NCBI GenBank assembly: GCA_010093605.1
Contig: MU004196.1
Coordinates: 274,255 to 338,254, forward strand
Length of the DNA stretch: 64,000 nt
Direction of reading: 5' to 3'
DNA from: Lophium mytilinum
Taxonomy: Eukaryota; Ascomycota; Dothideomycetes; Mytilinidiales; Mytilinidiaceae
Part shown: positions 3,566-58,408 of the stretch, in pieces
How the letters are laid out: each line of letters starts with the position of its first letter
Position numbering within the stretch: position 1 is the stretch's first letter
Translations under genes and position numbers: made by a program
Notes under the pieces: model-generated
Database searches by the model: none
The model's input: the letters and a program-made list of their open reading frames with translations, nothing else
What the model was told of the DNA's origin: nothing

Positions 3566-3677
3566 AAAAAAAAAATGTTGAAGCAACTCTTTGATAGAGC
3601 GTGTCATCCTTAGTGCAGGGGCCATGCTGATCTTCTCTGTGTTGTTTCAAATTGACCAAATGCCCGAAGGCGGGAGA
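3566..3677 (-). ncRNA. U6 spliceosomal snRNA
   Basis: Reading the minus strand, the core U6 blocks appear in order: a 5' hairpin with a CCTTCGGG loop region, CATTTGGTCAATTTGAAAC, the ACAGAGA box followed by AGATCAGC, then ATGGCCCCTGCACTAAGGATGA and CACGCTC, ending in a run of ten T (3575 down to 3566) that serves as the Pol III terminator. U6 pairs with U4, U2 and the 5' splice site and forms the catalytic core of the spliceosome. No intron is seen. The exact 5' nucleotide is uncertain by a few bases (about 3674-3680). Identity is firm because the central 40 nt are nearly invariant in eukaryotes. Confidence 0.95.
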
Positions 3678-3704: not shown

Positions 3705-5100
3705 TAAGCTGCGGAAAAGTAAACAAGCACGGGCCAGCTCCATGCGGGATTTTACACCTTAGGAGCGCCTCTCGAGCACCTCAGCACGCCCGAATGGATA
3801 CGTTTATTGCTTGTCACGATGCACGGAGGATATGAAGAGTCTCACGGCTGTCATAACGCTTATGATCGCGATTTGAAGCTACTCTACGCGTTTTCTGGCA
3901 ACTCACTCTGCTGGAAGCCAGCCACTGGACGATTTTCACCCAGTGGGATTCCAGACTAGCGGGTTTTACTGCGCCAGCTGTCAATTCGGTCACTACACTC
4001 CTACCACTGAAATCACCGCAGTGGATGATTTGGAAAAGTGAATGTAGATGTCCCACACGGTCCCCGAGTGCGAGCACGGGCTTCGAATTGACATGGCAAC
4101 TGAAGCCCATCTCTGATGCACTTCCATCAGAACGAGCATATTAAGCTTCACTTCGTGCGACTCGAAGAAGTGCAAAGGCGTTGAAACCTGCAAACCTAGC
4201 ATACCCAAAGCTCTCGCCATTGCCTGAAATTCTGGAGACGCAAGTAACGCTCAGAAGATCAATAATAATGTTGACGCCAAAACTGAATATGGAAAATGCG
4301 GTTATCCTTCTCAAAACCCACCGAATCCTGGTGGTGGGACATACAGATCTCAGGGGTACTGCTGAAAGCTCCGCTTAAGCTCAATTGGGGATTCGATCAT
4401 GCCCACCGTCATTCCCTCACTGCAATTTCGTGAAATGATGGAATGGAGGTGATAAAATAACGTCGCTCACCTCCTGACATCGGAGATCATGATGCTTCGA
4501 GCCGCTTCCCGAATGACATAGATCCCACTTCTCGACCTACCTGCAACTTCATAGCAAACAGAGCGAATAATGTGAACGAGAGAGGGCTATGACACCCAAA
4601 GTCTCAGTTCGCAAAATCTGAAATATCGAGCAGAACCTAGAAATCTTGCAAAGGTGCTGGAAGATACGGCCCAAAACCCTACCGCCTCAGGACAAAATTT
4701 GAGGAGCTCCTATTGCCGTAACACGTCCTCGGAGGAAAGCGTGGCGGTGTCGAGCGTTGCGAAGATAGCGGAGGAGTGGACTCCCTTACCTCGCCTTCAA
4801 TCTAGAGGTGACAGTCAGCAGTGCTGCCGCTTACAATATCGCCTGAGAGACTTGATATATGGTGTTCGTGGCACTAGGAAAGCTCCAGTATTATCAGAAT
4901 TCTGCAAACATGCTGAAATATCGGCCCATGGTTTCACTCGGGGCGTATGGGTTGGGATGGAAAAGACGAGCTAACGTCTTGAACTCAGTTACAAGAGCGA
5001 AGTGAAAGACAATTTACCTGGAGGAACCCACTGTTTCTGCCGTGGAGGGCAATTCGGGTGTTACGATTTCCTAAGCCTGGACGTGAAAGCACGATAGCGG
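3705..5100. other. Intergenic stretch upstream of the U6 gene
   Basis: No coding frame longer than about 100 codons and no family match on either strand. It merges on the right into the degenerate repeat array; isolated words such as TGACATC at 4477 and 4512 may be very old repeat units, but I cannot show a period here. Confidence 0.4.
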
Positions 5101-8100
5101 TCATTGAGACCTGAATGCTGATGACCGGCCTAAGCATTCTTGTAGCATCGAAATCAATGTAAAAGCTCGGGGACTACTTCCAAAAGACGATACAGTTGAA
5201 CTCCAACCTGGGATTTCAGGGATACTCAAAAATCCCTGACAGTGCTGAGCTCTTGTCATAACATCCTTCATCTCGAACTCTACACAACTGCCCATAGGCT
5301 TTCTAACTGCAACGAAAAGTTCGACATCTAAGGGCAGATCTGATAGCAAATTCGTTTGAGGTGTACCTCAGAACTTACAAATTCTTTGGGGTCTCTAAGC
5401 ATTGCTGAGGACCCGGCAGAATCATGGTCATTATAATACCCGATTTACTCCAAACCGGCGCCTTGAACGACGACAAGCAAGACCGTACGACCATCACTCC
5501 CAAAGCTTCGGCATGTCGCAAAATCTAAAGTCTTGATCTACGATTTGCAACCTTTGACGTCTCATATCGCAAAAGTCTCCCACTGTCTTGAAGCCACCTA
5601 GAGACATATCTCTGCTTCCAAATTGATAAGCATGTTCCTATAAATCTTACCTTTGGAGCCGCGCCTCAAAGCAAAATCCGAAGGCTCGGTTCAGCACGTC
5701 CGAACTTTGACATTGTCTTCCCAGATTATCTCCACGTCCAGGAGTCCTTCAAGATCATATCGCTGGCCCCCTATCAAACGCATGGGATCATGGATCTTGA
5801 TTGCCATGGATTACCCACAAGGAGATGCCATGTCAAACTCACAGTTCAATCCAGCGTGTGTAGGCTCCGACATCGCACATCGAAAATTACCCACCGTCCC
5901 GAGGATCTTTGGAATGATATCATTGCTTTCAAGCCGAACGCATAGAAAGTCTTGATTTGGAGTGGTTGGAAGTATGCTTGAATGGACCCACGAAAATATC
6001 CAAGGCCAGTGTCAGAGACCTATGGATGTGACATTCAACCGCGACATTTTTGACTAGCTGGTGGCCTTCGGACGATATCATACCCTCGGAAAAAAAATTT
6101 AATATCAAACTCCGACTTGAAGAGAGAAGCAAATATCTAGGCAGCTAGAGATCGAAATTCCTATAGTCCCAATCAAAGATGAGGGAATCTGACTTTCACC
6201 CTAGAGTTCCTAATTAGAAGGGCGACTCCCGACGCCGTTGAAAGGCAACAATGCTATGGGGTTCAAGCTTAGAATCAAACAGAGAAGCGATTTCCACCTA
6301 ATCCAGCAGCTGTATCAAGCCACAGAATCCGGACTCTTGGATTCAAGAGCAGCGAAAGTGGCATTCGGCAAGGAGAACTTTGCCCAGCTAGAGCGCCTCC
6401 AACGTTGTCAAGCAATGAAAAATGCGAAGCAATCTTGATGCAAGATCGAAGGGAAGAACCAATATCATCCGAATCATGGACCAAGTGGAGGAGCGGATTC
6501 CGAGCGCCAGAGTCGAAAGAGACCGAACATGACATTCGACGGGAAATTTTCCACCAGCTAGAGGACTTCCAACGCTGGCAAAGACCTTTCAAAGGTACAG
6601 ATGCAGAGTTGCAGCTCTACATGAGAAGCATCTGCATTGAATATCTCGTCCAACTCCAGTCCTCGAAAACCAGTTTTAGATCTGCAGCCTGCAGAAATGA
6701 TGTCCGACCGAAAGAATTTCGACTTTCCGAAGGAACTCGGACGTCGCCAAGCAAGATTCAAAGAAGCAGGTCCATGACGTTGGAATATACACAACTTGCC
6801 GTCTCCTCTGCTTTTCGAGGTGTTTGACCTAAGTATGAGCTAGCAAGGTCAGGCTGCAAGTGTAGGAAACATGGCATCTTAGAGGAACATTCGCGAGAAG
6901 CTGGGAGACGAGCAAGGAAACTGCAGAGCCATGGCGTTGCTCGTTTGCCATGAATATCTCAGAAGACAAGTAGGAGGGCGTTGCAGAGCCACAAGCTCAG
7001 TCCCTAAGGGTCCCGGAAGAAGAGTTCTTGGTTCTTTTCAAGAAGTTCGCCACATGTAATGAAGATAGCGTTTGACCGACAAAATCTCGGCTAGCTAGAG
7101 GACTCCTGACGCCGCTAAACATCTAGCAAAGGAACGAGCGTGAAGCTTAGATTTGAAGATGAAGCAAATCTTCGGGTTACCGGGTCACCAAGACCAGATT
7201 TTGATAACAGCGGACGCCAAATCCGCCTGCACAGAATTTGCACTGCCAGCGGACCTCAGACGGCGCCCATCGTCAGCCAAAACGCGATAACGTCGGGAGG
7301 TCAGATTTAAAGGACAAGAAACATTCCATTCAACCACGGAGATCTCGACTCGTTAGAGGCTTCAGACGGCGTTACCTGCGCAGCAAAACCTACGAACGTA
7401 AGGCTCTGTTTCAGGGTAGAAGCAAACCATGTATTCAAGATTCCAGGACCCGATATCGAGACTGGAGGACGAAAGCTTCGACCAGCCGGGCTTCGAGTAG
7501 CTGGAGGACGTGCGACGCCGTTCACGTCCGGCCAAAAGACCATGAAACTTCGAAGTGCTATTCGAAGGGCGTGGAATGGAACATTCGATCGAAAATATCT
7601 CAACCAGCTAAGGGGGTTCCGACGAGGCTAGCTATATTCCAAACCTACGGACTTAGAGCTCGATTTTGAAGCTAGAGTAGACGCCATACCTTGCGGACTC
7701 CCGGGGCTAGATTCGCAGAGCCGGGATTGCAGCATTTAAATACAAAAAGCTCAAACAGCTAGGGGGCTTCAAACGCCGTCGAAGAGCGATCAAAACGCCT
7801 CGAAACCGCCAGGTCAGATATGAAGAATCGGGAGTACAGCATTCAACTGCGTAAATTTGGCCCAGCTGGGGGACCTCAAACGATGTTAAGAGGCGATCAA
7901 AATGGCGCGAAACTGCTAGGTCAGATTTGAAGGGCTGGAAACGTAACCTTCGATCAAGAGAATGTCGACTAGTTGGCGGACCTCTAACACCGGTGACCAG
8001 TGATCAAAATGCCGTGGAAAAGGGATATCAGACTTCAAGAGTTGAAAACGTGACATTCGACCGCGAGGATGTTGACCAGTCAACGGGCTTCAAACGCCGA

Positions 8101-9550
8101 CAAGGAGCAGTCAAAACGGCGGGACTCTGCTGGGACAGAACCAAAGAGTAGGAAACTTGACATTCAACGGCGAGAATATCGACTGGCTGGCGGACCTCGA
8201 ACGCCGGTAAGGAGCTATCAAAACGGCGGGAATCTACTGGGACTGATTTGAAGAGTATGCAACGGAACGTTCGACTGTGAGGAAGTTGACTAGCTGGCGG
8301 ACCTCGAGCGCCGTGGAGACTCGATCAAGACCACCAGGAAAAGAGAGGTCAGACTTGAAGAGAAGAGATCATGACATCCGCGCGGCGGTTTTTGACGTTG
8401 CCAGGGCACTCCAAACATCGCTCAAGACCGATCATAACGCCCCGGAAAAGCGAAGTCAAATCTAAAGAGGAAAATTATAACATCCTTCCGGCGATTTGTG
8501 AGGCTGTCAGGGCACCTCAAACGCCGTGCAAGACCGATCAAAACGCCTTAGAAAAGCGATGTCGAATCTGAAGAGAAGAAACTGTAACATCCTTCCGGCG
8601 ATTTGTACGGCTGCCAGGGTATTCCAAACGTCGTTCACGACCGAACAAAACGGCGCCAGAATGCACACTGAGATTTGAAGAGGAGGAACCAAGACATCCT
8701 TGCTGCAATTTCTCATGTTGCTGGAGAGCCCCAAACGTCGGCAACACGCGATTCAAAGCGAGAGAAATGGCACGGTGAGAGTTGAAGAGGAGAATTCCTT
8801 ACGTTGATCCGGAATTTCTTTAGGCTGCCAGGGTACCTCAAACGTCGGCTAAATGCAATCAGATCGGTGCTGAGACGGGCTGTAAGAGTTGAAGAGGAGA
8901 ACTCCTTACATCACTCTGCAATTTTCTCAGGCTGCCGGAGGACCTCAAATGTCGGCGAAAGGCAATCAAAACGTTGCGGAAATGGGTTGCGAGAGTTGAA
9001 GAGTCACGAACGGGACATCCGTTCTGATTTTTCTCAGGCTGCTAGAGGCCTCCAAACGTTGAGGAAGCGCGATCAAAACGGTCTGCAAAGAGGAAGTGAA
9101 AGTTGAAGAGTTGGAAACGTGACATCCGGTCCAGTTTCTCTTAGGCTGCTGGAGGACTCCAAACGTCGATGAAACGCGGTCAAGATGATGCAGAACTGGG
9201 GTGTGGGAGATGAAGAGTCACGAACGTAACATTCGTCTTGATCTTTCTCGGGCTGCCAGAGGACTCCAAACGTTGATGAGGGGCGGTCAAGATGGTACGG
9301 AAATGGGCTGTGAGAGTTGGAGAGTTGGAAACGTGACATCGGCCTTCATTAATCACAGGCTACCAGAGGACTCCAAGCGTTGATGAAAGGTGGTTAAAAT
9401 GATGTGGAAATGGGTAGTCAAAGATGAAGAGTCGGGAACATGACATCGGCCTTGCTTTTTCTCAGGCTGCTGAAGAACCTCAAACGCTGTCAAGATCAAA
9501 GCAGAATCACGGAAGGCAAGCTCAAGTTTGAAGAGGAGAACAGATTGGAT
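5100..9550. repeat. Degenerate tandem array, 107-bp period in its right part
   Basis: Using the word (C)AAACGYCG as anchor, copies start near 7771, 7878, 7985, 8092, 8199, 8306, 8413, 8519, 8636, 8733, 8840, 8947, 9054, 9161, 9268, 9375 and 9482. That is 17 copies, with steps of 107 bp except for small offsets around 8519-8733. Each unit holds, in order, a GAGGACCTCNAAACG-like block, GATCAAAACGG, a GTTGAAGAG-like block and AACRTGACATYC. To the left, units recur at about 7614, 7514, 7364, 7260, 7107, 6571, 6401, 6231 and 6071, with steps near 105 or 150-170 bp. Faint units reach about 5465 and perhaps 5100. Because 107 is not a multiple of 3, this is not a coding repeat. No terminal repeats or transposase frame are seen. 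Confidence 0.85.
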
Positions 9551-10022
9551 TCAAACTACCAAAGAAAGCAACAAAAGCAACCACCAATCCCGAACCCAAC
9601 CCATCCCCTTTCTGACCCCCAAAGCTTCTAAAACCTGCACGCTGTGGTCAGTATTCACATCGCAAGAAGTCACCATCATGTCACAACATCACCATCAAGT
9701 CACTCAAGCAAGGCAAGACATGAGAGAGAGCGAGAACGAGGGTCTGTCGCGACAAGTTAGCCCAAGAACAACCATGAGAGAACAGAGGCAACGTACCAAT
9801 TCGGAGGCCACAGCGGGCCTTCTCCCGGCGCCCCCTGCTGGCGCAACCCAGCAGACACGAACAAAAGAAACATCACCAAAAACCCCGAAGGGCGGACGTG
9901 CTGTGGCCATTGTCAGCACAAGAAGCAACGAAAAAGGGGAGGATAAGAACTTACCGCGGTGCCGAGAGGGCCCGGCAACTTGTCGTCAACAAAAAAAAAC
10001 GAGGACCGGAAGAGGCATGCCC
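9551..10022. other. Stretch between repeat array and the small gene
   Basis: Holds the likely 3' UTR of the minus-strand gene at 10023-10505. A well-formed intron signal lies in it on the minus strand: GTAAGTTC near 9950 to CCACAG near 9900, with CTGAC just before the acceptor. A long plus-strand frame crosses this region, but it looks like a mirror of minus-strand coding sequence. Confidence 0.45.
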
Positions 10023-10505
10023 TTAGGCAGAGGCCGATTGCTTGCCACCAGCAGCGCCGGCGGACGGAGCGGACGGGGGAGCTGGGGGCGGCGAACCCGG
10101 GGGAGTCGGGGGTGCGCGGCCGGGGGCTGGGGACGGGCCGGGGGACCGGCGCCGCTGCTCTTCTGCCACGGAGGGGGAGACCTCCGACGCTGTGGACAGT
10201 TAGTGATGTTGAAAGAAGGGACTGAAAAGGGGTAGACCACGTGACAAGAAGAGGAAAAAGGTCAAAGAAGAAGATTTTGAAGGGGTAGGACAGGAACAAA
10301 CGAAGGTTGATTGGGTCAAGAAGGGATGAGAGGGGTGAGCAAGAGGAGGGAATGGTGAAGAGAAGGACCAGGAAGGACGCGATGAGTGACAGAAAAGGAA
10401 GAGGAGGCTTACCAGGCCAGTCATGCTCCTTCTTGCGAGCTATGTCGACAGTCAGTTAAGAACAGTGGAAGAAGAGGAGGAAGAAGACTTACGAGGACGC
10501 GCCAT
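10023..10505 (-). CDS. Small basic proline-rich protein, unknown function
   Basis: Three exons: 10493..10505, 10413..10439 and 10023..10189; the joins keep frame and give 68 residues. The ATG sits in an ideal context (CCACCATGG). Exon 1 has only 13 nt. Donors are GTAAGT and GTAAGC, the acceptors ATAG and CACAG, and CTGAC/CTAAC-like branch sites are present. The protein starts MARPPRKKEHDWPASE, a short basic patch, then turns into an Arg and Pro/Ser/Ala-rich tail (PPTPPGSPPPAPPSAP) and ends in SASA. No domain or signal peptide is recognised. An alternative acceptor 7 nt downstream would put exon 3 in another frame, which stays open to the donor of a further intron near 9950, so the C-terminus is not certain. 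Three copies of an 18-bp promoter repeat lie upstream. Confidence 0.55.
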
Positions 10506-10604
10506 GGTGGCGGGCGGTGGTGGTGGGTGTGGGTGGTGGGTGGTGTGGTGGTTGGTGGGTGGTGGTCTGGTGGTGGTCGAAAGCTTGTCGCAACGGGTGG
10601 GCAA

Positions 10605-10660
10605 TTGGGCGCGGTGTGGGCAGCTGGGCGCGGTGTGGGCAATGGGCGCGGTGTGGGCAG
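10605..10660. repeat. Triple 18-bp promoter repeat
   Basis: The word GGGCGCGGTGTGGGCA occurs three times, starting at 10607, 10626 and 10644. It is 100-155 bp upstream of the small proline-rich gene's ATG (minus strand). Spacing of 18-19 bp and exact cores suggest repeated binding sites or recent slippage. Confidence 0.75.
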
Positions 10661-12742
10661 GCTTTCGGACACCTCTCGAAAAAGTGGGCGACGGCCTTTA
10701 CTTATACTTGGACTCCCGCTAGCGCGGCCAATCCGTTGGGCCCCTCGGATCACCACCCTCGCGTCTGCCTGCTGCGGCCGGGTTCAACCAGACGAGGGGC
10801 CCCACAGAACCTGATAGACCGGCCAGGAACACCCCCTGATCCTCAGGGTGAAGGAAGGAGAGGTCTAGGACATCACGATAGGAAGCCGCAGCTGGATTCT
10901 ATTTGCTATCACCCTCAAATGGCCGCTCCTGGGCTGCAGCGCTGCTCCAGCTTCTGCCAGCTGGGAGGACCTCCAAGAGCTATGAGCAGCTCCAATCCGC
11001 CGCTCTCACCAGCTCAAGATGTATCTCATGGCCTCACGATGTACCTCGTCCCCCAATCCAGCTCCCCCCAGGCTTTGTGTACCCCTTGCACCTCCATATC
11101 AGCCCACCGTACCTGATCGACGTGCCTGATGCCACATCAGGGCAGACCGGCCTCGCCACCTCTCCCAATGTCCCACCCGTTCGCAGATCATGCGTCGATC
11201 TGTGGAGTCAGCCCCTCTCTGGCGCCGGCGTGAACCGAGCTCTGAAACCCGATTGTGCCTGGACTATACTGTTTGCGGCGGGGGGAGGACGGCCAACGGG
11301 TCAGGAGGGCCAGAATGGGCGCTCAACAAGCTTCCATGTGGACGGCGGGTGAGCGAATCACGCCATAGAGGGGCTCAGGCAGGTGGGCGCGCTCGGAGGG
11401 GCTGACGTAGCTGCGAAACCGCTGGGGACTGCCGCGGGGGTGGACGGAGGTCGGGGGGCGCTGGGAGAGTCGAGAGAGAGCAGAGGAGGGTGCGAGAGGG
11501 CTCGGTTTGGTACCAGGAAGGTCTGCGAGCTCGAGAGAGGGAGGGAAGAGGCATACTATGGAGTGTGAGGGCGTGAGGGCGTGAGGGTTCGAGATCTGGT
11601 GGTGAGGGTGAAGCCGGGCTGGACACGGCACGAGCAGCGCTGGCAAGCTGCCACAATGCCCAGAGAGGAGTGAGCGGACGGTGGATATGGGCTGCGGTAA
11701 TTCTGGAAGGTCATATCACACTCGGCAGCATCACAATGGTCGATTTCCAGGCCTCGGGGGTGGGAATCTGGCGTGGACGTGAGGATTTTGCGGACGCCCC
11801 GCGGAGGAGCGTTTTCGGACTGTCAACACACCCAAAACACCACGAAGACGCGCCAAAATTGCTGTGCGGAAGCCTGGGAATGACGAGATGGATGCCAGAG
11901 CAGCATATTCCTCAAAATCTCCACTGAGGCTTGCGAAATCAAGGAGAGCTTTCACCGCAGCTCCAGCGCGGCGCGGAGGTCTCGGAGGTCGCCACAAAGG
12001 TCTACAAAACACCATTCAGATCGGAATTGGATACTCACAAAGCTGGCAACTTTCGGAGGGCGTTCTGCAGAGTTTGAAATCTACCCCTTTTCGCTCTTGG
12101 CTGGAATTAGGCGTTGATATAGAACTACGTGAGAGTCTCCGCTGAAAGAGCATTCACGGGCAAGAAAGGTCTTAGAACACTATAGAACTTCTTCTAATTC
12201 ACTTCTCAACACATATTTCTTCGATGACATCTGTGAAAGCTTCCATAATCCATCCCAAGTGCGTTCAGGGGCATCTCCGGAGCTCAGAATCTACCTACGT
12301 CATACCCTGTTGCCTCGCTCACCACCATCACTCGCTACGCACCATATCTTTCATAGCATGGCCTTCTCAATACATCGAAATCCCACGCAGATCTCATGGT
12401 CTCAGCAAATAACAATATATAAAAGCTTGCAAAGAACCCATGCATTGAATCAACTACCATTCCCCTCAGCCCCCATCCCAAAAAACGCCAAAGCTATGCA
12501 AATGCCACCCACCCAGCTCTAAGTATGCCCGTGGCCCCATATCCCCCGTATAAGAACCCTAGGCATGGTCGAAACGATGAGACCAAAGCCAGTCAAAACT
12601 CGTAGGCCAAAGCGAAAGAGAGCAGACAGCTGATGACCAGCTGCTACCGAATAGAAACCCCAAGAAACGCCAGTAACACCATCGTTAGAAAAGTAGGGCG
12701 AGAGCTCAGCAGCACCGTCTACCATCCCATCTCATCTCGAAC
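10661..12742. other. Intergenic stretch before the SepH gene's 3' end
   Basis: About 2 kb of GC-rich then mixed sequence. Several frames of 70-110 codons exist on both strands, but none has a family match, splice support or consistent codon bias. The right part (about 12.2-12.7 kb) should carry the SepH 3' UTR. Confidence 0.45.
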
Positions 12743-26499: not shown

Positions 26500-28070
26500 T
26501 TCTCATCCAGATGGAGGTAGAGGACTCCTAACGGTGACAAACCCATGGAAAAAGCGTATGGAAAGGGCTCATCTCATTTGAAGCGGCTGGAGTATGATAT
26601 TCAGGTAGCGACTTTCATATTGTACTTAGACGTCCTTCACCATGTTATATATGTGCGCAGCCTTAAGGCTTATGGGCTCTGATATGACATCTCCTTGCCC
26701 GTGTACCCCTTCATAGTCATGAAGATGGACGCAGAGGCCTCCCAACGGCGGCGAGAAGATGGAAAATGGAGGTAGAAAGCGTAGATTCAATCTAGAGCGA
26801 GCGGAAATAACATCCGTGGGCCGATCATCATGTAACACGTAGACGTCCTTCACGAGATCCAATGCATGCGCAGCTTTACGGTCTAGAGAGCTCGATACAA
26901 GCTGTTCTATTCTCGCACGACCTCCTGCTTAGGAGGGCGTCTGCGGAGGACTTCTGGCATGCGCAAGTGGGACGTGAAAAACACCCATTTGATTTGGAAT
27001 TTACAGTACATGACATTCATTGCGTAAAAACCCTGAAACCTCTAGACGACCTCCGCATATTTTTGGATAGGCGCAGCTTCATCGTCGCAAGGGCTAAAGT
27101 CAAACGTTGCTATTCTTACATTGCTTCTCGACCACAGCTATACATTAAAAGGGCTCCTGACACTGGCAAGCATATAGAAAAAGGCTATAGAAAGCACGCA
27201 TCTAATTCCAGGGCTCTAAACTATAACATCTACATATTTGCCATTTTGAAAGGTTTAGATGGCCTTCGCGTAATTTTCCAGATCTACACTTTCACGATAA
27301 AGAGCGTCTACTTTGAAGTGCATTTATTGTTGTATTCGTTACGCTCTAGAAGCCATCTCTAGAGGACTCCTAACACTAGCAAGTAGCTAGAAAAACGGCG
27401 TAGAAAGCACGCGCCCAGTTCAAGTCGTCTAGAACATGACATCCAAATTGGCTCTATCTTGAAATGTCCAGGCAGACTTCATGTACTTTTCCAAATGAGC
27501 AGTTTCACAACAAAGGGCGTGTAGTCTAAAGTGTCTTTGTTACTGCATTACCTCAGGTCCGGAAGACGTCACCGGAGGACTCCTAGCATTGGCAGGTGTA
27601 TGAAAAAGGGTCGCAGAAAGTACATGTCCAATTCCAGGTATCTGGAACATGACATCGACGTAGTCGCCAGTTTGAACTGTTCAGAAGGCCTATACGAGAT
27701 TTCACGTGCGCGAAAAATCGCCATTGCGAAGGCCTAATTCTGCGCATCCGGGATATAACATCCATGGGACTATTATTCTGATACCTTTGGGAGGACTTTA
27801 CAAGATTGCACATATGCGCAATATCGCAGTTACGAGGGTTCAATCTAACGCCTTCAATATATGACATCCATAGGGTCTCTATCTTAGTACCTCCAGAAGG
27901 ATTTCACGAGATTGCACTTACGTGCAAAATCACGATGATGGGGACCCAATTTGACGCATCCAAAAAATGACATCAGCAGAGTGAAAATCACGAAACATCT
28001 TGACTGGCATCACGCAATTTTCCACATGCGCAATGTCACAATCAAGTGAGTTCAATTTGAAGCAGAGAGT
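26500..28070. repeat. Second tandem array of the 107-bp family (dimers, then monomers)
   Basis: The GAGGACTCCTAAC-like block recurs near 26530, 26744, 26956, 27159, 27372 and 27585, a step close to 213 bp or twice 107. The ACATGACATC block recurs at 27439 and 27652, then at 27759, 27864 and 27970, a step of about 106. The block GAGGACTCCTAACACTAGCA followed by AGCTAGAAAAACGG aligns with GAGGACTCCTGACGCCGCTA near 7098 in the first array, on the same strand. No open frame of note and no transposon ends. Confidence 0.8.
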
Positions 28071-29254: not shown

Positions 29255-32200
29255 ATGGGAAGACGTCTTTTGAATGATGTGTGCAGTTGTGGTGATGTTG
29301 TGGAGGCGAGAGCGAGAAGCAGATGATATATTTGACTGACCGCCCAACCGCACGCGAGACCACGGTGCGGGCCGCACCGCCTTCTTGAGCAGCCTCTACA
29401 CTTGGCTGCCACTGTTTGCGGTGCCCCGAGGCATTTTCGGAATTCTGATCTGGATACAAGCCCAGCAGATTGAACAGTTGTTATACTCGACAGGCCACAC
29501 CAGACAGCGGCAGAAGAGTGTACACATATTGGAAGTATGGCGCACCGCTCCAGGCCTCTATCGGTGCTTTACACGCTTCTGACAGGATGTACGGATATCT
29601 AGACCGAGATACTGTACGGTAGCACAAGGGCTGCGCGCTTCAATCCCGAATACATCCACGCTGCTGACAGACCTAGTAGAATCTCTGCGCATCCCAACCT
29701 GCAGTGAGCTCTTGAGCACCTCCTCTAGACTTTCAAGCCTTCTTCGAGCCTCCTCGAGGACAGGGTGCAGCTTCAAGCCCTCCTCGCCTTCCGATCGATG
29801 CCCCTCGCGCCACGGCGCCCCGCCGACACGGCGAAGTCGACATGGGACCACCAAAAGCAGGGACTAGAGATACTGGCACGATCCAGCTTGCGAAATTGAT
29901 GGCGGAGCATGGTCATAGAGACGGCATTCGTCCCGCGGGGCAATGCGATGGCGACAGCGCGCTCCGGCGACAGGACTATGGTTGGCGACTGCTGCGGCGG
30001 AGTATATCAGGCATGGCGGCCACCTTTAAGACGGCTATCTTGTAGGGGGTCGACGGTATACAAACGTGTTTGGAAAGCCAATTTGAGAGCCGAGATGACT
30101 TATGGACATAGGTCTCGCAGATCCCCCTAGAAGACCGAGCTGACAAGCGCTCAAGACCCATCCAAGTAGCCGTCATACTTCAAGCGCTGAAGAACTTGCC
30201 CTAAAACAACCCCCACACGCGATGCCGACTTGCAGCATCGGAAAATGGGACCACATTGAGGATATTGGGATCCCGGGTTTGGACGCCACCAGCCGGGACG
30301 CTTCAAGAATAAACAAAGAGCGGGAGAGTTTGTTCCAGAAGTAAAAAACATAAAGAGCAGATTATAAAGAAGAGACAGAGATGTAGAAGCAAAGCAAGCG
30401 GAGAAGCGGGCAAATTATGATGCTGAAATGAAAAAGAAAGACGAAAGCCGGTACCGTTATGGGACGTATGCCCTCTCGTAGCTCCCTGACATCCACTTTG
30501 GGCTATCTGACAGCTTTCAGCGACCTATGAGAAATGCCATACTACATGATCATCTTACTTTTGGAGGGTTCAGCGTCTCAGTCTCAATCTCTCTAGTCCT
30601 CAATCGTCTAGACCATCCTAGGATCCTACAGGATTCTTAGCCTCCTAGCGTTAATGAGATGGCAAGAGAAGGAATCGCACCGTGGTGATACAAACGGCAT
30701 GAAGGAGCGGAATGACAGCTTAGTGGAGCTTTGCTATGGCAGGGCCGTTGGGGTTGATAGCCCCTGATTCTTGGGATGGGACATGGTCACGTGACTCATG
30801 TCCAGAGTCCAATCCTCAGGTAAAACACCAAAATGGCCTCTGTGCTTAAAGAATCCTCAACAAAACGTCCCGGCCAGGCGCATGGAATCTATTCGTGAAA
30901 CTTAAGACCAAAGGTGTACGTGCACTCCGCTGTGTCAGTCTCGCTCTGTAAGCATAGCCGCTTTCTCATGCTGCCTCAGATGCTCAGTCATCTCACAAGC
31001 TTACTTCCTCCAGGACGCAGAGACCGGAAGAGATCAACGCTACCTTAAAAGCCTTTTGGCAGAGTCCTCGTTCATGGTGAAGAAGGAGGAAAAGGGATGG
31101 CACCTGGGTCGAAATAAAGTTCCCCGCCATTGTCTCGCTTGCCCCTGACTGGTACCACGGCCCGTTCGCATGCAGAGCCGTGGCACGCTTCGGTAATTGC
31201 CATGCAATATATGTGTATTGCGTTCGCCTGGGTTCCGGTGTCGATCTCATCTCACTCAGCTCCTCATCTACACTCCGTTCCTAAAGACGATCAATCCAGC
31301 GTGCTTTCAAAGACAAATAGAATATGGTCCAGGTCTCTAGATGAAAACCGCCGGATTGATGGACTTCCAGCTAGACCCAGGGACAGAGACATTATTTGTA
31401 ACCAGCAATACGACATCGGGAGCTGTGGGAAGTCCCCCTGTGAAGACTTGGTGAGGTCAATCTAGCTCGGTGTATATGCATTCGCAATCCATGGATGTAC
31501 CAACTCTTCAGGCCATGAAGGTCGCGCCGAAAACCTTTTGTCGGCTGTCTTCCAATTTGCTTGATAGCTCCGGATCTGAGCCTAGGCTGGAGGTTTCCAT
31601 GGTCAAACCCTTCCCACCAAGTGGCTAGAAAACTGCATCGCATGGCTAAATATCTGAATTCTTTACGTTGGATGACCTTCCATGATAGTCCGCCTTCTAT
31701 TGTCCAGGAATGGGACTTGGACTGGTACCTATCCGATATGGGATCTTCTCCTTTCTTCTCTCCTTTCTATCCTCCATTCGTCAATCGACCCGGACAAACT
31801 GTATATCTTTTGAAAATTGTTTTAATGCTCGCTCGGATTGTCTCATTGCAGACCCACAGATGTCGTCCACATCTGGCATAAAATCAGCACCATGAAGGAA
31901 ACCCCCGAACTCTTTAGCTACACCCTAAACCCATTGGTTGGAATGAGTATAAGATGAACTCCTTATCGGGACCAATTGGTGGGCAACTTGGGTACCATCT
32001 CCACGTTAGCGAGGAAGATTTAGTATGGGCTTTCGTTCGACGCCTGCGGTAAACCTTATGATTCTGCTGGGCTCGAGGGGACGCTCGAGTTCGTTGAGGC
32101 CGTATGATTCGATGTCATACCGCTCGACTAGGTGTTGAAAATGAACACAGTGAGGATGTGCCATAAAAGGTTGCCTCCGATTCAAAGAGTGAAAGACATT

Positions 32201-53300: not shown

Positions 53301-55861
53301 TGATCACACTCACTGGCTCAGCTCTATACGCACAAGCAGCCACATGTTCAGAGTACCTCCAATCGACATGGCCTAGTAGTGGGGGGCTATTCCTCGACTC
53401 TCTTCAGGATGCGCTGGATAAACGATTTAGCGCTGACTCTGCGGAATGTATCCATCTTGATCGTAAGTTCAGACCAGATCTTTAGTCCCTTTGCGTTTCG
53501 TATAAACCACAGCGCAATTGTGCCTTATCCAAATTCCAGTTTCTCTTACATGGCCCAAATGTTGGGGTTTTCAAATATCCATACTTCTCTTCATGGCTAC
53601 TGTTGTTCGTCTACTTGCCATCAAGCTCATCCACTAACGGTGTTGGTCTAGATACCTCCTCGAAACTACGCATCAAATTTACTCTGCCTCCGGTGTCCTC
53701 CAAAAAAGACGGTACTAGCAGAATGGAGATCTGTGCAAACGGAATTCCGCAACATCTCACTGAACTCACTCAGCAAATATTGTGGATTGGATCTGCATTG
53801 AACTTTTCGGCTTCAAGTGAGCAGATAGCCTACTCGGAGGCCGTAATTGGCCAGGGCCCATCTTGCTTGAATATCTCCTTCCGTAATACGGCCTTACATC
53901 CCACCGAAAATCCATGCTGGCTTCCACTCTTCTCTGGTGCAACTATTGCACGAAATTTCCCCATTCCCGAGCGTCAAGACCAGACAGGACTGGAGATACC
54001 AATAGACATCATGGCAGGGATTGCTGGAGTTCGACACGCTGTAGAGTATGCCGGCGGTGTCGTCATGAAAGGGTTCTCGTCCATGTTTGTGCCCATTGAA
54101 AGGCTCGGAAACCTCGTGCAATGGCATCTAATCTCCAGTTCGGACTGCGACACTCGGCTGAGCTATAAAGACGTTCTCGAAAGATGTAAGAACCGAGCTA
54201 CTCTCAAAGATGTGAGCCTAGACTCTCTTCGCACTACTCGCGCTATTGTTGGTTGGTGCAATACGGCGAGCACAACCCTGGGGTCTGCCTTGGCCAACTA
54301 TGAGAACCTCGACTACTCTGGAGCAAAAGATGCTGAGAGCTCACTAAAGTGTGCTGGTGGTACGCTTGGATTCCAGCAATTTGGAGTTGCTCAAGCCGAT
54401 TTCAGTTTTGGGCCCAAGGACGGGAAATGCCACTTCCAGAGGAACGGGCCTTATGAGAGTATTGTCAAGATCGCGGAGAAGACCCCGGTCACTCTCTATG
54501 ACACAGCAGAAAATCGAGCCTGGCTGGTGCCCGCTTCAAGTGTCATTCTCCACATTGCTCAGCACCGAAACTGGTTGGAACCTTTTCAAGTTGACGGCCA
54601 GCGTGTCAATCTCTTCTCTTCCTTAGCGAAGTGCTCATCAATCAGAGACATTCTACTCCGGAATGCCTCAATCGAGTTGTCAGATTACGAGAGATACACA
54701 TTCAAAGACATGGTCACTAACATATGGTCACTTCTCGAGTTTCTCTTAGACCAAAATGTGAGAATTGATCGGACGGCAGGCGGAGCCATCGAAAAGCCAT
54801 GCCAAGATATACTTAAGGGTTTCGAATTCAAGGCCGTTGTCGAAGAACTATCACCGTTTCGCCAGAAACAGGCCAAAATTAAGAAGACTTGCGGCGGTTG
54901 GCCAACTCTTGTTCGCGACATTGATGCTCTGGTTCTCTTCGCGAACGGTTTCGAGGATCTCATTCTACCTCTAGAAGACGAAAGCGCCGATCTTTGCAGG
55001 CTTTGGCAAAGAGTACCAAAAGGGCAAGACTATTTGGCCACTAGCGTCAAGACCCTTACTGACCTATACAATGTCGCTGGATGTAGAACTAGCCGTGCTT
55101 ACCTTACTTCTACTGAATTGCAGTGGCACCGGGGTACCTCAACTCTTTTCGAGCCTTGTAAGAATCCGGGAGCCTACAGATGCGAGTGTGTCCGACTGCA
55201 GCGGATCCTGCCTAAATCTGCGACTGGTACCATCATACCCCCAGGCTCCCTAACAGAAGCCAAAGATGGTGCCGTTATCTTCGGGCACTCTAGTACTGTG
55301 TTACAAACGCTCAAGCCTACTTTTAAAGTCCCGTCGACCAAAGGGCTATTCACTCAACCAAACATTCCTCTCACTCCGGTCATCGTGGGCCAGGATTCGG
55401 ACGAAGGTCTCACGGACGGCGAAACAGTAGGGCAAACGGACTCAGATGGCACTGGCATAACACCATCGTCAAGTATAACATCATACACCAACGAGGATGA
55501 ATCTAGCAACCAGGACGTGAGTATGACCGGCCTGGAGCTTGAACCTAGGGGTTCGCGAAAACGACGGTGGCCTCCCGATGAGTCTGGCGATAGCCTAATG
55601 GCACCCCAGCGAAAGTGCCAGTTTCTTGAACCGAACAAGAGGACGAAAAACACGACGCCCAGCCGCGAGATGAATCCTGGTTGCCGTGTATTCGGCGGGA
55701 GTCAAAAGTCTCCTGAGCCTTCGACACTGGGTCCTGGCAATGAGACATATTCTTGTCAGTTCGGGGACCCAACCTGCCTGAAGTCTCCACCCCAACTTCG
55801 CGTTCTGAAAAAGCAAACGGCTCAGACCTTTGATCGGCGGTATACTCAAAGGGAGCCGTGA
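50376..55861 (+). CDS. Large PHD-finger protein of a fungal family (about 1,700 aa)
   Basis: Exon 1 is 50376..50621 (MAEPYNRKSASVAK...), joined in phase (DEDYSQ|SNIGYGSQ) to 50792..53462, then to 53652..55861. A PHD finger lies at about residue 525: CICGFFDDDGSTVPCKTC, NKWQHLTC, and CVDC give the Cys4-His-Cys3 zinc pattern used to read histone H3 tails. N-terminal to it are a basic SRSRKRQRTKS signal and a helical segment with homeodomain-like DVPSQVISAWARVY. After it come helical regions and a Cys-rich ECHCNC motif. The last exon has a globular part (GGTLGFQQFGVAQADFSF) and a disordered basic tail (GSRKRRWPPDE). The 189-nt last intron is long and could hide a small exon, so that joint is less sure. 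Probably a nuclear/chromatin protein. Confidence 0.8.
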
Positions 55862-57142
55862 TTGACCTGGCGAGGTTTGACAACCTCAGCTCTCTCTCGA
55901 GCGCTGCGAACCAATGCAATGATGGTCTTCACCATTTTATGGATAGCGAATGGAGTTCTAGCCAAGGAAACTAGATTTCCATCGACCTGCGTCCGCTAGC
56001 TGGGCCTCAGCTCAACAGCATTCATCGAAGCCCATCAGATGCCGAAATCGTTCTGTGCGAGTGGTTTCCGGTGACAGTCAGCCACCTTCACGTCGTCAGC
56101 GATCTTGTCCACAGTTTTGTTGCGCAGAGATTTCGGGATTGTGGAAACATGGCTCGGCTTTCACCAGGCCTCAAATTTGTGACCCCGAGACCCAAAGATG
56201 GCTTTTCCCTGGAGGGCCCAGCTCAACCTCCACCCGCAAGCAGTTGTCTGCGTTGTGTTAGTGGATAGAGATTGGAGAAGGCAGGACACTGGGCCTAGAA
56301 GAAAGTGGCGGGGGCATGATCTTGGGTTTATACGACACCATTTCCTGGGGTTTTAACAAGCGGAGGATCGATTTAGATGGATGAGTTTCTATGATTGGAG
56401 CTCTAATCGGGATGAACATGCTGATGATACTCCTGGGGCATAAGGAAACATGTTCAACGGCCGAGAACTCGTGACGGATAGTACTAGGATATCAATTTGC
56501 CGGGCTATATAGAGCAAAACGTGACGAGGAACCTTGTGAAAGAAAGGGTCTGGTGAACATTTGAGGATTTCGAAATAGTCTTACGGTTGTCTCCCCAGCC
56601 ATCCATGGTACTGGAAACAACAGAGCCGACGACCTCGTCCCACTATAGGGGGCCAAACAAGTGACCCTCACCCGACATCCCCATCCCCTCCCCCCCCATT
56701 CCATCAGCAATATGCGCACACCTGCATGCAGCAGCGGCGACAAAATGTTGCCCTCCACGCCTCCCACCCTGCGCAGCCCACGCGGCATTAACGCGGGCGG
56801 GATCGTCCGCTGGGCCGGTGGTACAGAAACTCGAATCTATTATCCCTCCTATGCTCCCCCATCTCGCCCACGCAATCCATCCCACCACGTTCCGGCCGCT
56901 TGGACGCGGAAAAGCATAGTCGCGTTTTTGCGGGGAGAAAAAAGGCCAGCGCTCTGAGCCGGGGCCTGCAGTTAGCGAAAACCCGCCCAGCCGAGGGAGG
57001 GAAAGCTTGCCGGTGACATAGCTCCAGAAGCAACCTCAACTCTGCTTTGCTTGCTCCCCACCATCAACCCCGGATTCCACCCCCGCCGATCCTCCACCAC
57101 GCCTCGACTGATGCTCGTGTAGCTGTGCGAGGCAGTGCCACG
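55862..57142. other. Intergenic region before the transacylase gene
   Basis: About 1.3 kb. Short frames on both strands without motifs. The right 250 bp is the likely promoter/leader of the malonyl transacylase gene. Confidence 0.5.
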
Positions 57143-58408
57143 ATGCTGAACAAGGGAGTGCGCGCCATTGCGCCTGTGGCTAGTCAGCCGCGGGCCAGCG
57201 TCATCCGGCGGCGGCGATGGATGAGCACAGCGACGACGAAGAGGCCTCGAACTGCTCTATTCTTCCCAGGTATCTATCCCCTATTCCCCCTTCACCCACT
57301 CCCCATTCTAACACCTCGACCTCCAGGCCAAGGCGTCCAACGCGTCGGCATGATCACGCCCTGGCTCGACGCCTTCCCCCGCACCGTCCTCCCCATCCTC
57401 GACGAAATCGACAGCACTCTCCGCATCCCCCTCTCGCGCATCATCGCCGACGGGCCCAACGCGACCCTCACCGCGACCGAGAACGCCCAGCCCGCCATCA
57501 TGGCCACCTCGATCCTGATCCTGCGCGTGCTGGAGCAGGAATTCGGCTTCGACACGCCCTCCCGTGTCGACATCACCCTGGGGCACTCGCTCGGCGAGTT
57601 CGCGGCCCTCGTCGCCGGCGGCTACCTCACCTTCACCGACGCGCTGAAGATGGTGCGGCGGCGCGCCGAGGTCATGGCGGGGTGCAGCGCGGCGGCGGCG
57701 AGCGCGACCGAGGGCGGCGAGTTCGGCATGGTGGCGCTGGTGTGCGAGAGCGAGGCGCACATGCGGGACCTCGTCGTCGGGATCTACGAGTTCCTGGGCT
57801 TGTCGAGCGCGGGGTCGAAGTCTGATTCCGCGAACGACTTGCCGGCGGTCGAGCAGGTGTCGATTGCGAATATCAATTCGAAGAATCAGATTGTGCTGAG
57901 TGGGAGTATCGAGCGGATTAACACGCTCATGACGAATTTGAGGCAGTTTGGCGGACATGATCCTAGGCATGTGCGGTTGAAGAGTGATAGTCCGTTTCAC
58001 AGTCCGCTGATGAAGCCGGCGGAGGAGATGATGAAGAAGTTGCTGTATGAGCCGACCGAGGAGGGGAGGGATATTATTACGTGGCCGGGGGTTATGCCGT
58101 GTATTTCGAATGTTTCGGCGAGGCCGTTTAAGTCGGAGGATCAGCTTAAGGATTTGCTGGCACGAGGGTGTGTGGATACTGTCAGATGGTGGAATTCTGT
58201 CAAGTACCTGGATCAAGAAGAGAAGGTCAGGAGATGGGTTGGCATTGGGCCTGGCAAGGTGGGTAGGAACCTAGTGGGCAAAGAGGTGGGCATGAAGGGG
58301 GCTGTCAAAGGAGGGGGAGTCTGGGGCATCACATCACCAAAAGAGGCCGAAGAGGTCATGCGAGCACTGGACGACACGGAGCACATAGAAGAGGAGGAAG
58401 AGGAATGA
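57143..58408 (+). CDS. Mitochondrial malonyl-CoA:ACP transacylase
   Basis: Two exons, 57143..57269 and 57327..58408, in phase, 402 residues. I chose the ATG at 57143 because the open frame before it has only TTG, and what follows is a typical presequence (Arg/Ala/Ser-rich, MLNKGVRAIAPVASQPRASV). FabD motifs: FFPG|QGVQRVGM across the splice joint, ENAQPAIMATSI, the nucleophile elbow GHSLGEFAAL (Ser), conserved Arg in RRRAEVM, the SKNQIVLSG strand, and FHSPLM (His). It loads malonyl groups onto mitochondrial ACP for type II fatty acid synthesis, which supplies octanoate for lipoate. An acidic Glu run ends the protein. It converges on SDR 3 with an 80-bp gap. Confidence 0.93.
   Translation: MLNKGVRAIAPVASQPRASVIRRRRWMSTATTKRPRTALFFPGIYPLFPLHPLPILTPRPPGQGVQRVGMITPWLDAFPRTVLPILDEIDSTLRIPLSRIIADGPNATLTATENAQPAIMATSILILRVLEQEFGFDTPSRVDITLGHSLGEFAALVAGGYLTFTDALKMVRRRAEVMAGCSAAAASATEGGEFGMVALVCESEAHMRDLVVGIYEFLGLSSAGSKSDSANDLPAVEQVSIANINSKNQIVLSGSIERINTLMTNLRQFGGHDPRHVRLKSDSPFHSPLMKPAEEMMKKLLYEPTEEGRDIITWPGVMPCISNVSARPFKSEDQLKDLLARGCVDTVRWWNSVKYLDQEEKVRRWVGIGPGKVGRNLVGKEVGMKGAVKGGGVWGITSPKEAEEVMRALDDTEHIEEEEEE

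What the first reader, a model, noticed from the sequence alone, without database searches (positions are those of the whole stretch)
5100..9550. Long degenerate tandem array with a near-constant 107-bp period
Seventeen anchors between 7771 and 9482 span 1711 bp, 16 steps averaging 106.9 bp, while the units themselves differ at many positions. A period held this tightly against heavy substitution suggests few indels are tolerated or that copies turn over by unequal exchange. The period is not a multiple of three, no open frame runs through it, and it has no transposon ends. It could be a satellite, a structural or replication element, or a source of phased small RNA; the last three are speculation.
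Basis: seen in the sequence. Interest (0 to 1): 0.75.

Follow-up and report, generated by a model that had tools for sequence, protein, structure and literature searches.

The report
Dispersed fungal satellite with shared core
A stretch of non-coding fungal DNA repeats a 107-letter unit sixteen times with almost no change in length, and it belongs to a genome-wide family of such arrays that shares a short core motif with small hairpin mobile elements, so something seems to hold the spacing constant while the letters drift.

Summary
The array is real. From 7770 to 9480 there are 16 full units (15 of 107 bp, one of 106), 67% alike between neighbours: 533 substitutions against a single 1-bp length change. 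Cores continue leftwards at irregular spacing to 6058; 5100-6000 is not convincing. It is not coding and shows no RIP signature, RNA structure or Rfam match.

It is not unique. A 20-bp core (CTRGNGGACYYCWAACGNYG) occurs 321 times in this 43-Mb genome at up to 2 mismatches, against 40 for the reversed pattern. It sits in tandem arrays with unit lengths near 98, 107-108, 141, 151, 161, 170 and 215 bp, in a MITE family and in small hairpin elements. A second box, ACATC, lies mostly 27 or 28 bp before the core's GGAC genome-wide (96 matches versus 5), while array period varies.

Best reading: a transposon-linked dispersed satellite superfamily, amplified locally. Its length lock most likely reflects spacing read by a DNA-binding protein; that step is inferred. 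Core-to-core distances cluster near multiples of 10.65 bp (helical phasing), but a held-out test supported this only through recurrent lengths. New variant of a known kind; interest about 0.5.

The parts
7770..9480 (+). regular array, 16 full units of 107 bp (one of 106), starts 7770, 7877, 7984, 8091, 8198, 8305, 8412, 8518, 8625, 8732, 8839, 8946, 9053, 9160, 9267, 9374
9481..9540 (+). possible partial last unit (profile positions 1-63, E 2.1, so weak); its first bases complete the last core
6058..7769 (+). older, irregular part of the same array; core copies at 6058, 6218, 6388, 6558, 6727, 7095, 7246, 7501, 7608 (weak) and 7759
9149..9168 (+). example of the shared core (CTGGAGGACTCCAAACGTCG), an exact match to the genome-wide core pattern
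9122..9126 (+). example of the second box (ACATC), 27 bp before the GGAC of the core
   Evidence: C16:283376-283419
7770..8304 (+). subfamily A, five units that group with three units of the array on contig C19 (98/83)
8305..9480 (+). subfamily B, eleven units; best matches of 4 of 4 C23 units and of the C11 unit, but also of 2 of 6 C19 units
26517..27593 (+). second, strongly degenerate array of the family in this window; cores at 26517, 26731, 27359, 27572
29393..29548 (.). hairpin element with two facing-away cores (29429 - and 29490 +, 61 bp apart), similar to the second palindrome of the MITE family (E 8e-8 and 0.007)

Best explanation
The array is one member of a dispersed, non-coding, transposon-linked satellite superfamily. 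Its common denominator is a module of two boxes at fixed spacing: ACATC, 27 or 28 bp, then GGNCNYCNRACG. The same core also forms part of the ends of small hairpin elements and lies inside a MITE. Units were seeded at many places, probably with mobile elements (inferred), and amplified locally by tandem duplication and unequal exchange (supported by local clades of units at other loci). Letters then drifted while lengths stayed fixed. I infer that a DNA-binding protein, either the transposase of the hairpin elements or a host protein, reads the module and the spacing between modules, so that indels are lost. Shown: family, fixed box spacing, length lock. Inferred: protein, selection, mobile seeding.
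For: Core 321 matches against 40 for the reversed pattern. Two-box pattern: 96 against 5 at gaps 26-29, 25 against 26 at gaps 0-25, 43 against 28 at gaps 30-59. Of 149 core sites not of the MITE type, from 42 stretches, 52 have an ACATC-type match between -54 and -7, all at -30 or -29. Core within a MITE with terminal inverted repeats and a 5-bp target duplication (4 or 5 of 5 equal) in 10 of 14 copies. Length lock: array units equal in 105 of 120 pairs, MITE part after the core equal in 1 of 91 pairs; inner inverted core pair of the MITE exactly 90 bp in 13 of 13 copies measured, while the part after the core ranges over 252-286 bp in 14. 69 pairs of facing-away cores: 49 at 50-52 bp, 12 at 60-62, 4 at 83-84, 4 other. 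One array elsewhere takes only 107-108 or 160-162 bp in 14 successive steps. Local clades of units at C1:1889k and C16:151k, support 93/83 and 91/84, just under the program's 95/80 mark.
Against: With a gap-allowing aligner the window array has one gap per 10.7 substitutions and the MITE one per 7.6 (6.7 after the core), a small difference, although compensating gaps at 66% identity are likely artefacts. Core copies were mostly collected by a core pattern, so core conservation is partly selection of the sample; the 96 two-box matches are not independent, many share an array. No protein, binding or transcription data. No element ends bracket the window array and no autonomous partner was looked for. 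Relatives vary more: core steps of 106-108 bp at C23 and 95-108 bp at C19, and the left part of the window array itself is irregular, so the lock is not absolute.
Confidence: 0.55

Rival explanations
1. Neutral transposon-derived satellite. The period is rigid only because units are copied in register by unequal exchange and conversion, and indel-bearing units pair poorly and are lost. No function and no protein.
For: Neighbouring units are more alike than distant ones (0.668 down to 0.531). A two-unit period of 214 bp at 8822-9470 suggests past block duplication. Other satellites keep monomer length while diverging (recalled, alpha satellite). Local clades elsewhere.
Against: The box gap of 27/28 bp persists in arrays whose periods range from 98 to 235 bp, and the 90-bp inverted pair is fixed in dispersed MITE copies where exchange in register cannot act, though that could also be fixed before the copies spread. 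Window units are not homogenised.
Confidence: 0.3
2. Internal tandem repeats of a larger mobile element such as a Helitron or Helentron, as in the oyster, which carries the array as cargo.
For: Satellite-like arrays inside Helentrons are described (PMC7492417, abstract read). Arrays and MITE pieces lie side by side at C16:150-152k. One end of the C23 array, 69 bp at 87% identity, recurs at C16:1153.5k.
Against: Between the window and the loci on C23, C11 and C19, similarity is confined to the array at E 1e-3, and the left flank of the window array found only itself. Helitron ends were not searched for.
Confidence: 0.08
3. Transcribed non-coding RNA or small-RNA source with repeated structured units.
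For: The + strand is purine-rich (AT skew 0.2-0.29 over 6001-10000) and TpA is depleted (0.38 of expectation against 0.71 in 30-60 kb of the window). Hairpin elements fold better than shuffles (mean z -2.0 over 40).
Against: RNAalifold finds no pair in 25 units. Window units do not fold consistently better than shuffles: z from -1.5 to 1.0 on + and from -1.9 to 2.6 on -. No Rfam match in 5000-9600 at E up to 1.
Confidence: 0.05
4. Decayed protein-coding repeat.
For: Period 108 in sister arrays is a multiple of three. Frames 1 and 3 of the + strand have about two-thirds of the expected stops (18 and 19 against 29 and 30, about two standard deviations).
Against: No 3-base rhythm of conservation (power at period 3 about average). 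107, 98 and 161 are not multiples of three. Stops occur in every frame.
Confidence: 0.02

Closest known systems
Meloidogyne satellite DNAs with the CENP-B-box-like Box 1 (PMC3694981, passages read)
   Same: Highly divergent satellites (32-64% identity, as the paper says) share a short conserved box, 17 bp there, that also marks monomer junctions.
   Different: Here the box is another sequence (not aligned to the CENP-B box), is joined to a second box at fixed spacing, and also occurs in MITEs and hairpin elements. Arrays seen here are short and dispersed, and unit length is locked.
Xenopus Xstir and miDNA4 MITE-derived satellites (described in the review PMC12628747, passages read)
   Same: MITEs and tandem arrays in one genome share sequence, including composites of the two.
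   Different: Here only about 20 bp plus some flank are shared between the MITE and the 107-bp units, not the whole monomer.
Cg_HINE Helentron-borne repeats of the Pacific oyster (PMC7492417, abstract read)
   Same: Short satellite-like arrays scattered over the genome.
   Different: Helentron ends were not searched for here; the window array shares no flank with C23, C11 or C19.
Primate alpha satellite with CENP-B box (recalled)
   Same: Monomer length kept while monomers diverge; a short protein-binding box in the monomer.
   Different: Dispersed short arrays here; 107-108 or 161 bp instead of 171; no link to centromeres was tested.

Membership tests
Satellite / minisatellite DNA | head-to-tail tandem repetition above chance | tested here: met
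Satellite / minisatellite DNA | non-coding units | tested here: met
Satellite / minisatellite DNA | concerted evolution within an array | tested here: inconclusive
   neighbours more alike, but units interleave with those of C19 and C23 in the tree
MITE-derived satellite | sequence shared between a MITE and the array | tested here: inconclusive
   core shared; the MITE profile matches the window array only over 23 bp at E 0.09
MITE-derived satellite | array flanked by terminal inverted repeats | tested here: not met
   in 4000-12700 the three inverted pairs of 18 nt or more do not bracket the array; target duplication not tested
MITE (the D1 family, not the array) | terminal inverted repeats and target-site duplication | tested here: met
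   TIR of about 26 bp; 5-bp duplication, at least 4 of 5 equal, in 10 of 14 copies, 7 perfect
CENP-B-box type satellite | box bound by a CENP-B-like protein and centromeric place | not testable with these tools
   no binding or chromatin data
Helitron/Helentron-borne repeats | Helitron 5' and 3' ends around the array | not tested
   -
Structured non-coding RNA repeats | conserved secondary structure | tested here: not met
RIP-mutated repeats | excess TpA, loss of CpA/TpG | tested here: not met
   TpA/ApT 0.45 in the array, 0.71 in 30-60 kb; (CpA+TpG)/(ApC+GpT) 1.14 against 1.22
Coding repeat | open frame and 3-base rhythm | tested here: not met

The most novel reading that the evidence does not exclude
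The cores are binding sites placed on one face of the DNA helix. Distances between cores are allowed only in steps of one helical turn (about 10.6 bp), so array period, hairpin spacing and module spacing are all geometry of a repeated protein-DNA assembly that the genome carries at hundreds of places and that mobile elements exploit.
Probability: 0.2. Interest if true: 0.85.

Novelty: new variant of a known kind. Interest (0 to 1): 0.52.

Why it matters
Satellites usually give little hint of what, if anything, is under selection. Here one genome offers many copies of one module in three settings: regular arrays, hairpin elements and a MITE. Letters have drifted and lengths have hardly changed. 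That makes an old question testable, whether the monomer length of satellites is functional or a by-product of unequal exchange: count indels per substitution in dispersed single copies, where exchange in register cannot act.

Tried and rejected
Rejected: coding repeat; RIP; RNA structure and Rfam (the only hit is below the family's gathering score and taken as chance); intron-exon repeat, because the GGTAAG seen after some cores is not conserved (reading). A 22-letter core pattern had no exact match in viral contigs or genome contigs, but the latter holds bacteria and archaea, so this says little. Collinear block copy between window and C23: not supported, three of four C23 units match the same window unit best.

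Helical phasing, told in full. Same-strand core distances of up to 260 bp (n=202; consecutive cores of one strand, so some span an opposite core) fit a period of 10.65 bp best in the range 6-16 (R 0.69, jitter null maximum 0.31 in 2000). With one value per distinct length per array, n=115, R 0.55 (null maximum 0.37); without the 108, 161 and 215 classes, n=67, R 0.42 at 10.55 (null maximum 0.40); one value per length class genome-wide, n=26, P 0.025 (all). In one search, strictly adjacent same-strand cores in 28 length classes give P 0.037 unweighted and 0.001-0.002 weighted; convergent pairs (14 classes) P 0.06-0.26 with the period scanned, and divergent pairs (6 classes) P 0.21 with another best period (7.85). 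On 20 further loci, with period and phase fixed beforehand: all 38 distances mean cosine 0.50 (no null of 20000 as high), 24 per-array distinct lengths 0.42 (P 0.00015), but the 13 lengths outside the recurrent classes -0.035 (P 0.58), and the free scan there prefers 9.0-9.1 bp, not 10.65. I picked those 20 places from the lists without measuring; the 98-bp spacing of one of them was visible. So the signal rides on a few recurrent lengths that may be shared by descent.

Paper searches for this kind of thing (one search listed none) showed no title or abstract start that describes this core or a 107-bp fungal family; I saw listings only, except the three papers named.
Full report
Setting. The window is C16:274255-338254 of a 43.18-Mb assembly in 24 contigs. 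It is probably a filamentous ascomycete: the named hits among the 120 listed relatives of one window protein are, as far as I recognise them, ascomycetes such as Glonium, Periconia and Massarina, at 58% identity or less. The species is not known. The array lies between a U6 snRNA gene at 3572-3671 and a small minus-strand reading from about 10505 downwards with intron-like gaps (my reading, not tested).

What is there. Sixteen full units run from 7770 to 9480: 15 of 107 bp and one of 106. Neighbours are 67% identical and units eight apart 53%. Between neighbours there are 533 substitutions, and one unit is 1 bp shorter. Transitions over transversions are 1.40 between neighbours and 0.98 over all pairs of the 15 full-length units; the MITE family described below gives 1.37. 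RIP indices are low. To the left the same core goes on with uneven steps of 160, 170, 170, 169, 368, 151, 255, 107 and 151 bp, starting at 6058. An iterated family profile gives pieces at 6016-6064, 6327-6394, 6507-6566, 7260-7359, 7515-7614 and 7706-7767. The 5100-6000 part of the finding is not supported beyond a weak lag-160 signal. No inverted repeat brackets the array.

It is a family. A DNA search with the array found 6 matches outside the window, on C23, C11 and C19. The 20-bp core pattern has 321 matches at up to 2 mismatches against 40 for the pattern read backwards; the first 100 places, which alone are listed, lie on 21 of the 24 contigs. I read 30 of these at 3 kb each, of which two are the window array itself, and later 20, 5 and 20 further places. 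By eye and blastn, 18 of the 30 are one MITE family, which I call D1. In the 14 of these 18 whose ends could be found the copies measure 383-419 bp, and 10 have a 5-bp target duplication (at least 4 of 5 equal, 7 perfect; chance expectation 0.2). Other places are tandem arrays: 98 bp at C3 and C8, 108 bp at C1:1889k, C16:151k and C12, 161 bp at C1:50k, 234-236 bp at C16:1078k, and a mixture of six 107/108-bp and eight 160-162-bp steps at C23:177-180k.

Two boxes at fixed spacing. Around 149 cores not of the MITE type, from 42 stretches (two of which overlap a little), an ACATC-type match lies at -30 or -29 in 52 sites and nowhere else between -54 and -7. Other outside positions are also above background, for example +22, +33, -46, -6 and -4. 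Genome-wide, ACATC followed by the loose core gives 96 matches at gaps of 26-29 bp (reversed pattern 5), 25 at 0-25 bp (26) and 43 at 30-59 bp (28). Some of the 43 are the same arrays with a second ACATC in front. The 96 are not independent, since many lie in one array, and a few look like chance. Yet they fall in arrays of quite different period, so the module rather than the period is the invariant.

Length lock. Units of the window array have equal length in 105 of 120 pairs. In D1 the part after the core has equal length in 1 of 91 pairs, at higher identity. Inside the same D1 copies, the stretch from inverted core to core is exactly 90 bp in 13 of 13 copies (of 14; one failed the end match and was dropped). 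Over the loci read, 69 pairs of facing-away cores are 50-52 bp apart in 49 cases, 60-62 in 12, 83-84 in 4, and 49, 54, 55 and 94 in one each. Clustering the 49 spacers at 55% identity leaves clusters of 28 and 13, which are partly the same family read on opposite strands, and 8 single spacers that share the length (all 51) but not the sequence. Against this, a gap-allowing aligner gives one gap per 10.7 substitutions in the window array, 10.5-20.6 in six other sets of units, and 7.6 in D1, a much smaller contrast. I think most of those array gaps are compensating artefacts, because the lengths are equal, but I could not prove it.

How it probably arose and is kept. A tree of 46 units from 7 loci shows two layers. 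Units of C1:1889k and of C16:151k each form one clade (93/83 and 91/84, just under the program's mark), so they were probably amplified in place. Window units do not: five of them group with three C19 units (98/83), and single ones pair with C23 units (97/85 and 99/90). So the window array is an old one whose unit types are older than, or were exchanged among, loci. By simple identity the picture is less clean: two of six C19 units match a subfamily B unit best. My best explanation is mobile seeding plus local tandem duplication, followed by drift of the letters under a constraint on length. A protein that binds the two-box module and neighbouring modules together would explain the constraint; this is inference.

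Helical phasing is the bold form of that inference and is told with its failures in Tried and rejected: a period of 10.65 bp in the first set, borne out in a held-out set only through the recurrent lengths, and not for the rare ones.

Comparison. The nearest published cases that I saw are satellites of Meloidogyne that share a 17-bp box although otherwise 32-64% alike (PMC3694981, passages), MITE and satellite pairs of Xenopus (reviewed in PMC12628747, passages) and Helentron-borne repeats of the oyster (PMC7492417, abstract). The present family works like the first: a short common box in otherwise divergent repeats. It differs by a second box at fixed spacing, by the shared use of the core in hairpin elements and a MITE, and by the length lock. 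Membership in 'MITE-derived satellite' is not shown for the window array: no element ends bracket it.

Noticed in passing
window 26517-27593: A second, much more degenerate array of the same family, cores 214, 628 and 213 bp apart, with repeated ATGACATCC-like motifs (reading).
   Followed up: partly
window 29393-29548: A hairpin element of the superfamily: facing-away cores 61 bp apart with longer matching ends.
   Followed up: partly
L081 (C23:177000-180000): Array of 15 cores whose 14 steps take only two lengths, 107-108 or 160-162 bp; the longer unit seems to have about 53 bp more in its middle.
   Followed up: partly
L021-L047, D1 copies: MITE family with ends beginning CACGC..GGCA.GAAAAA and 5-bp target duplications; its superfamily was not identified.
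   Followed up: partly
L053 (C12:1291k): The last two to three 108-bp units are nearly identical, so tandem duplication in the family is recent there.
   Followed up: no
L008 4444-4512 and L019 1501-1569: 69 bp at one end of the C23 array recur at 87% identity at C16:1153.5k, about 120 bp from a pair of facing-away cores.
   Followed up: no
window 3572-3671: U6 snRNA gene, minus strand, 2.4 kb left of the first core.
   Followed up: no
window 53603-55861: 752-aa reading with 179 relatives; the 120 listed carry Pfam PF28131, some are called Pfs domain protein.
   Followed up: no
window 57047-58408: Acyl transferase domain (PF00698), so perhaps part of a polyketide synthase.
   Followed up: no
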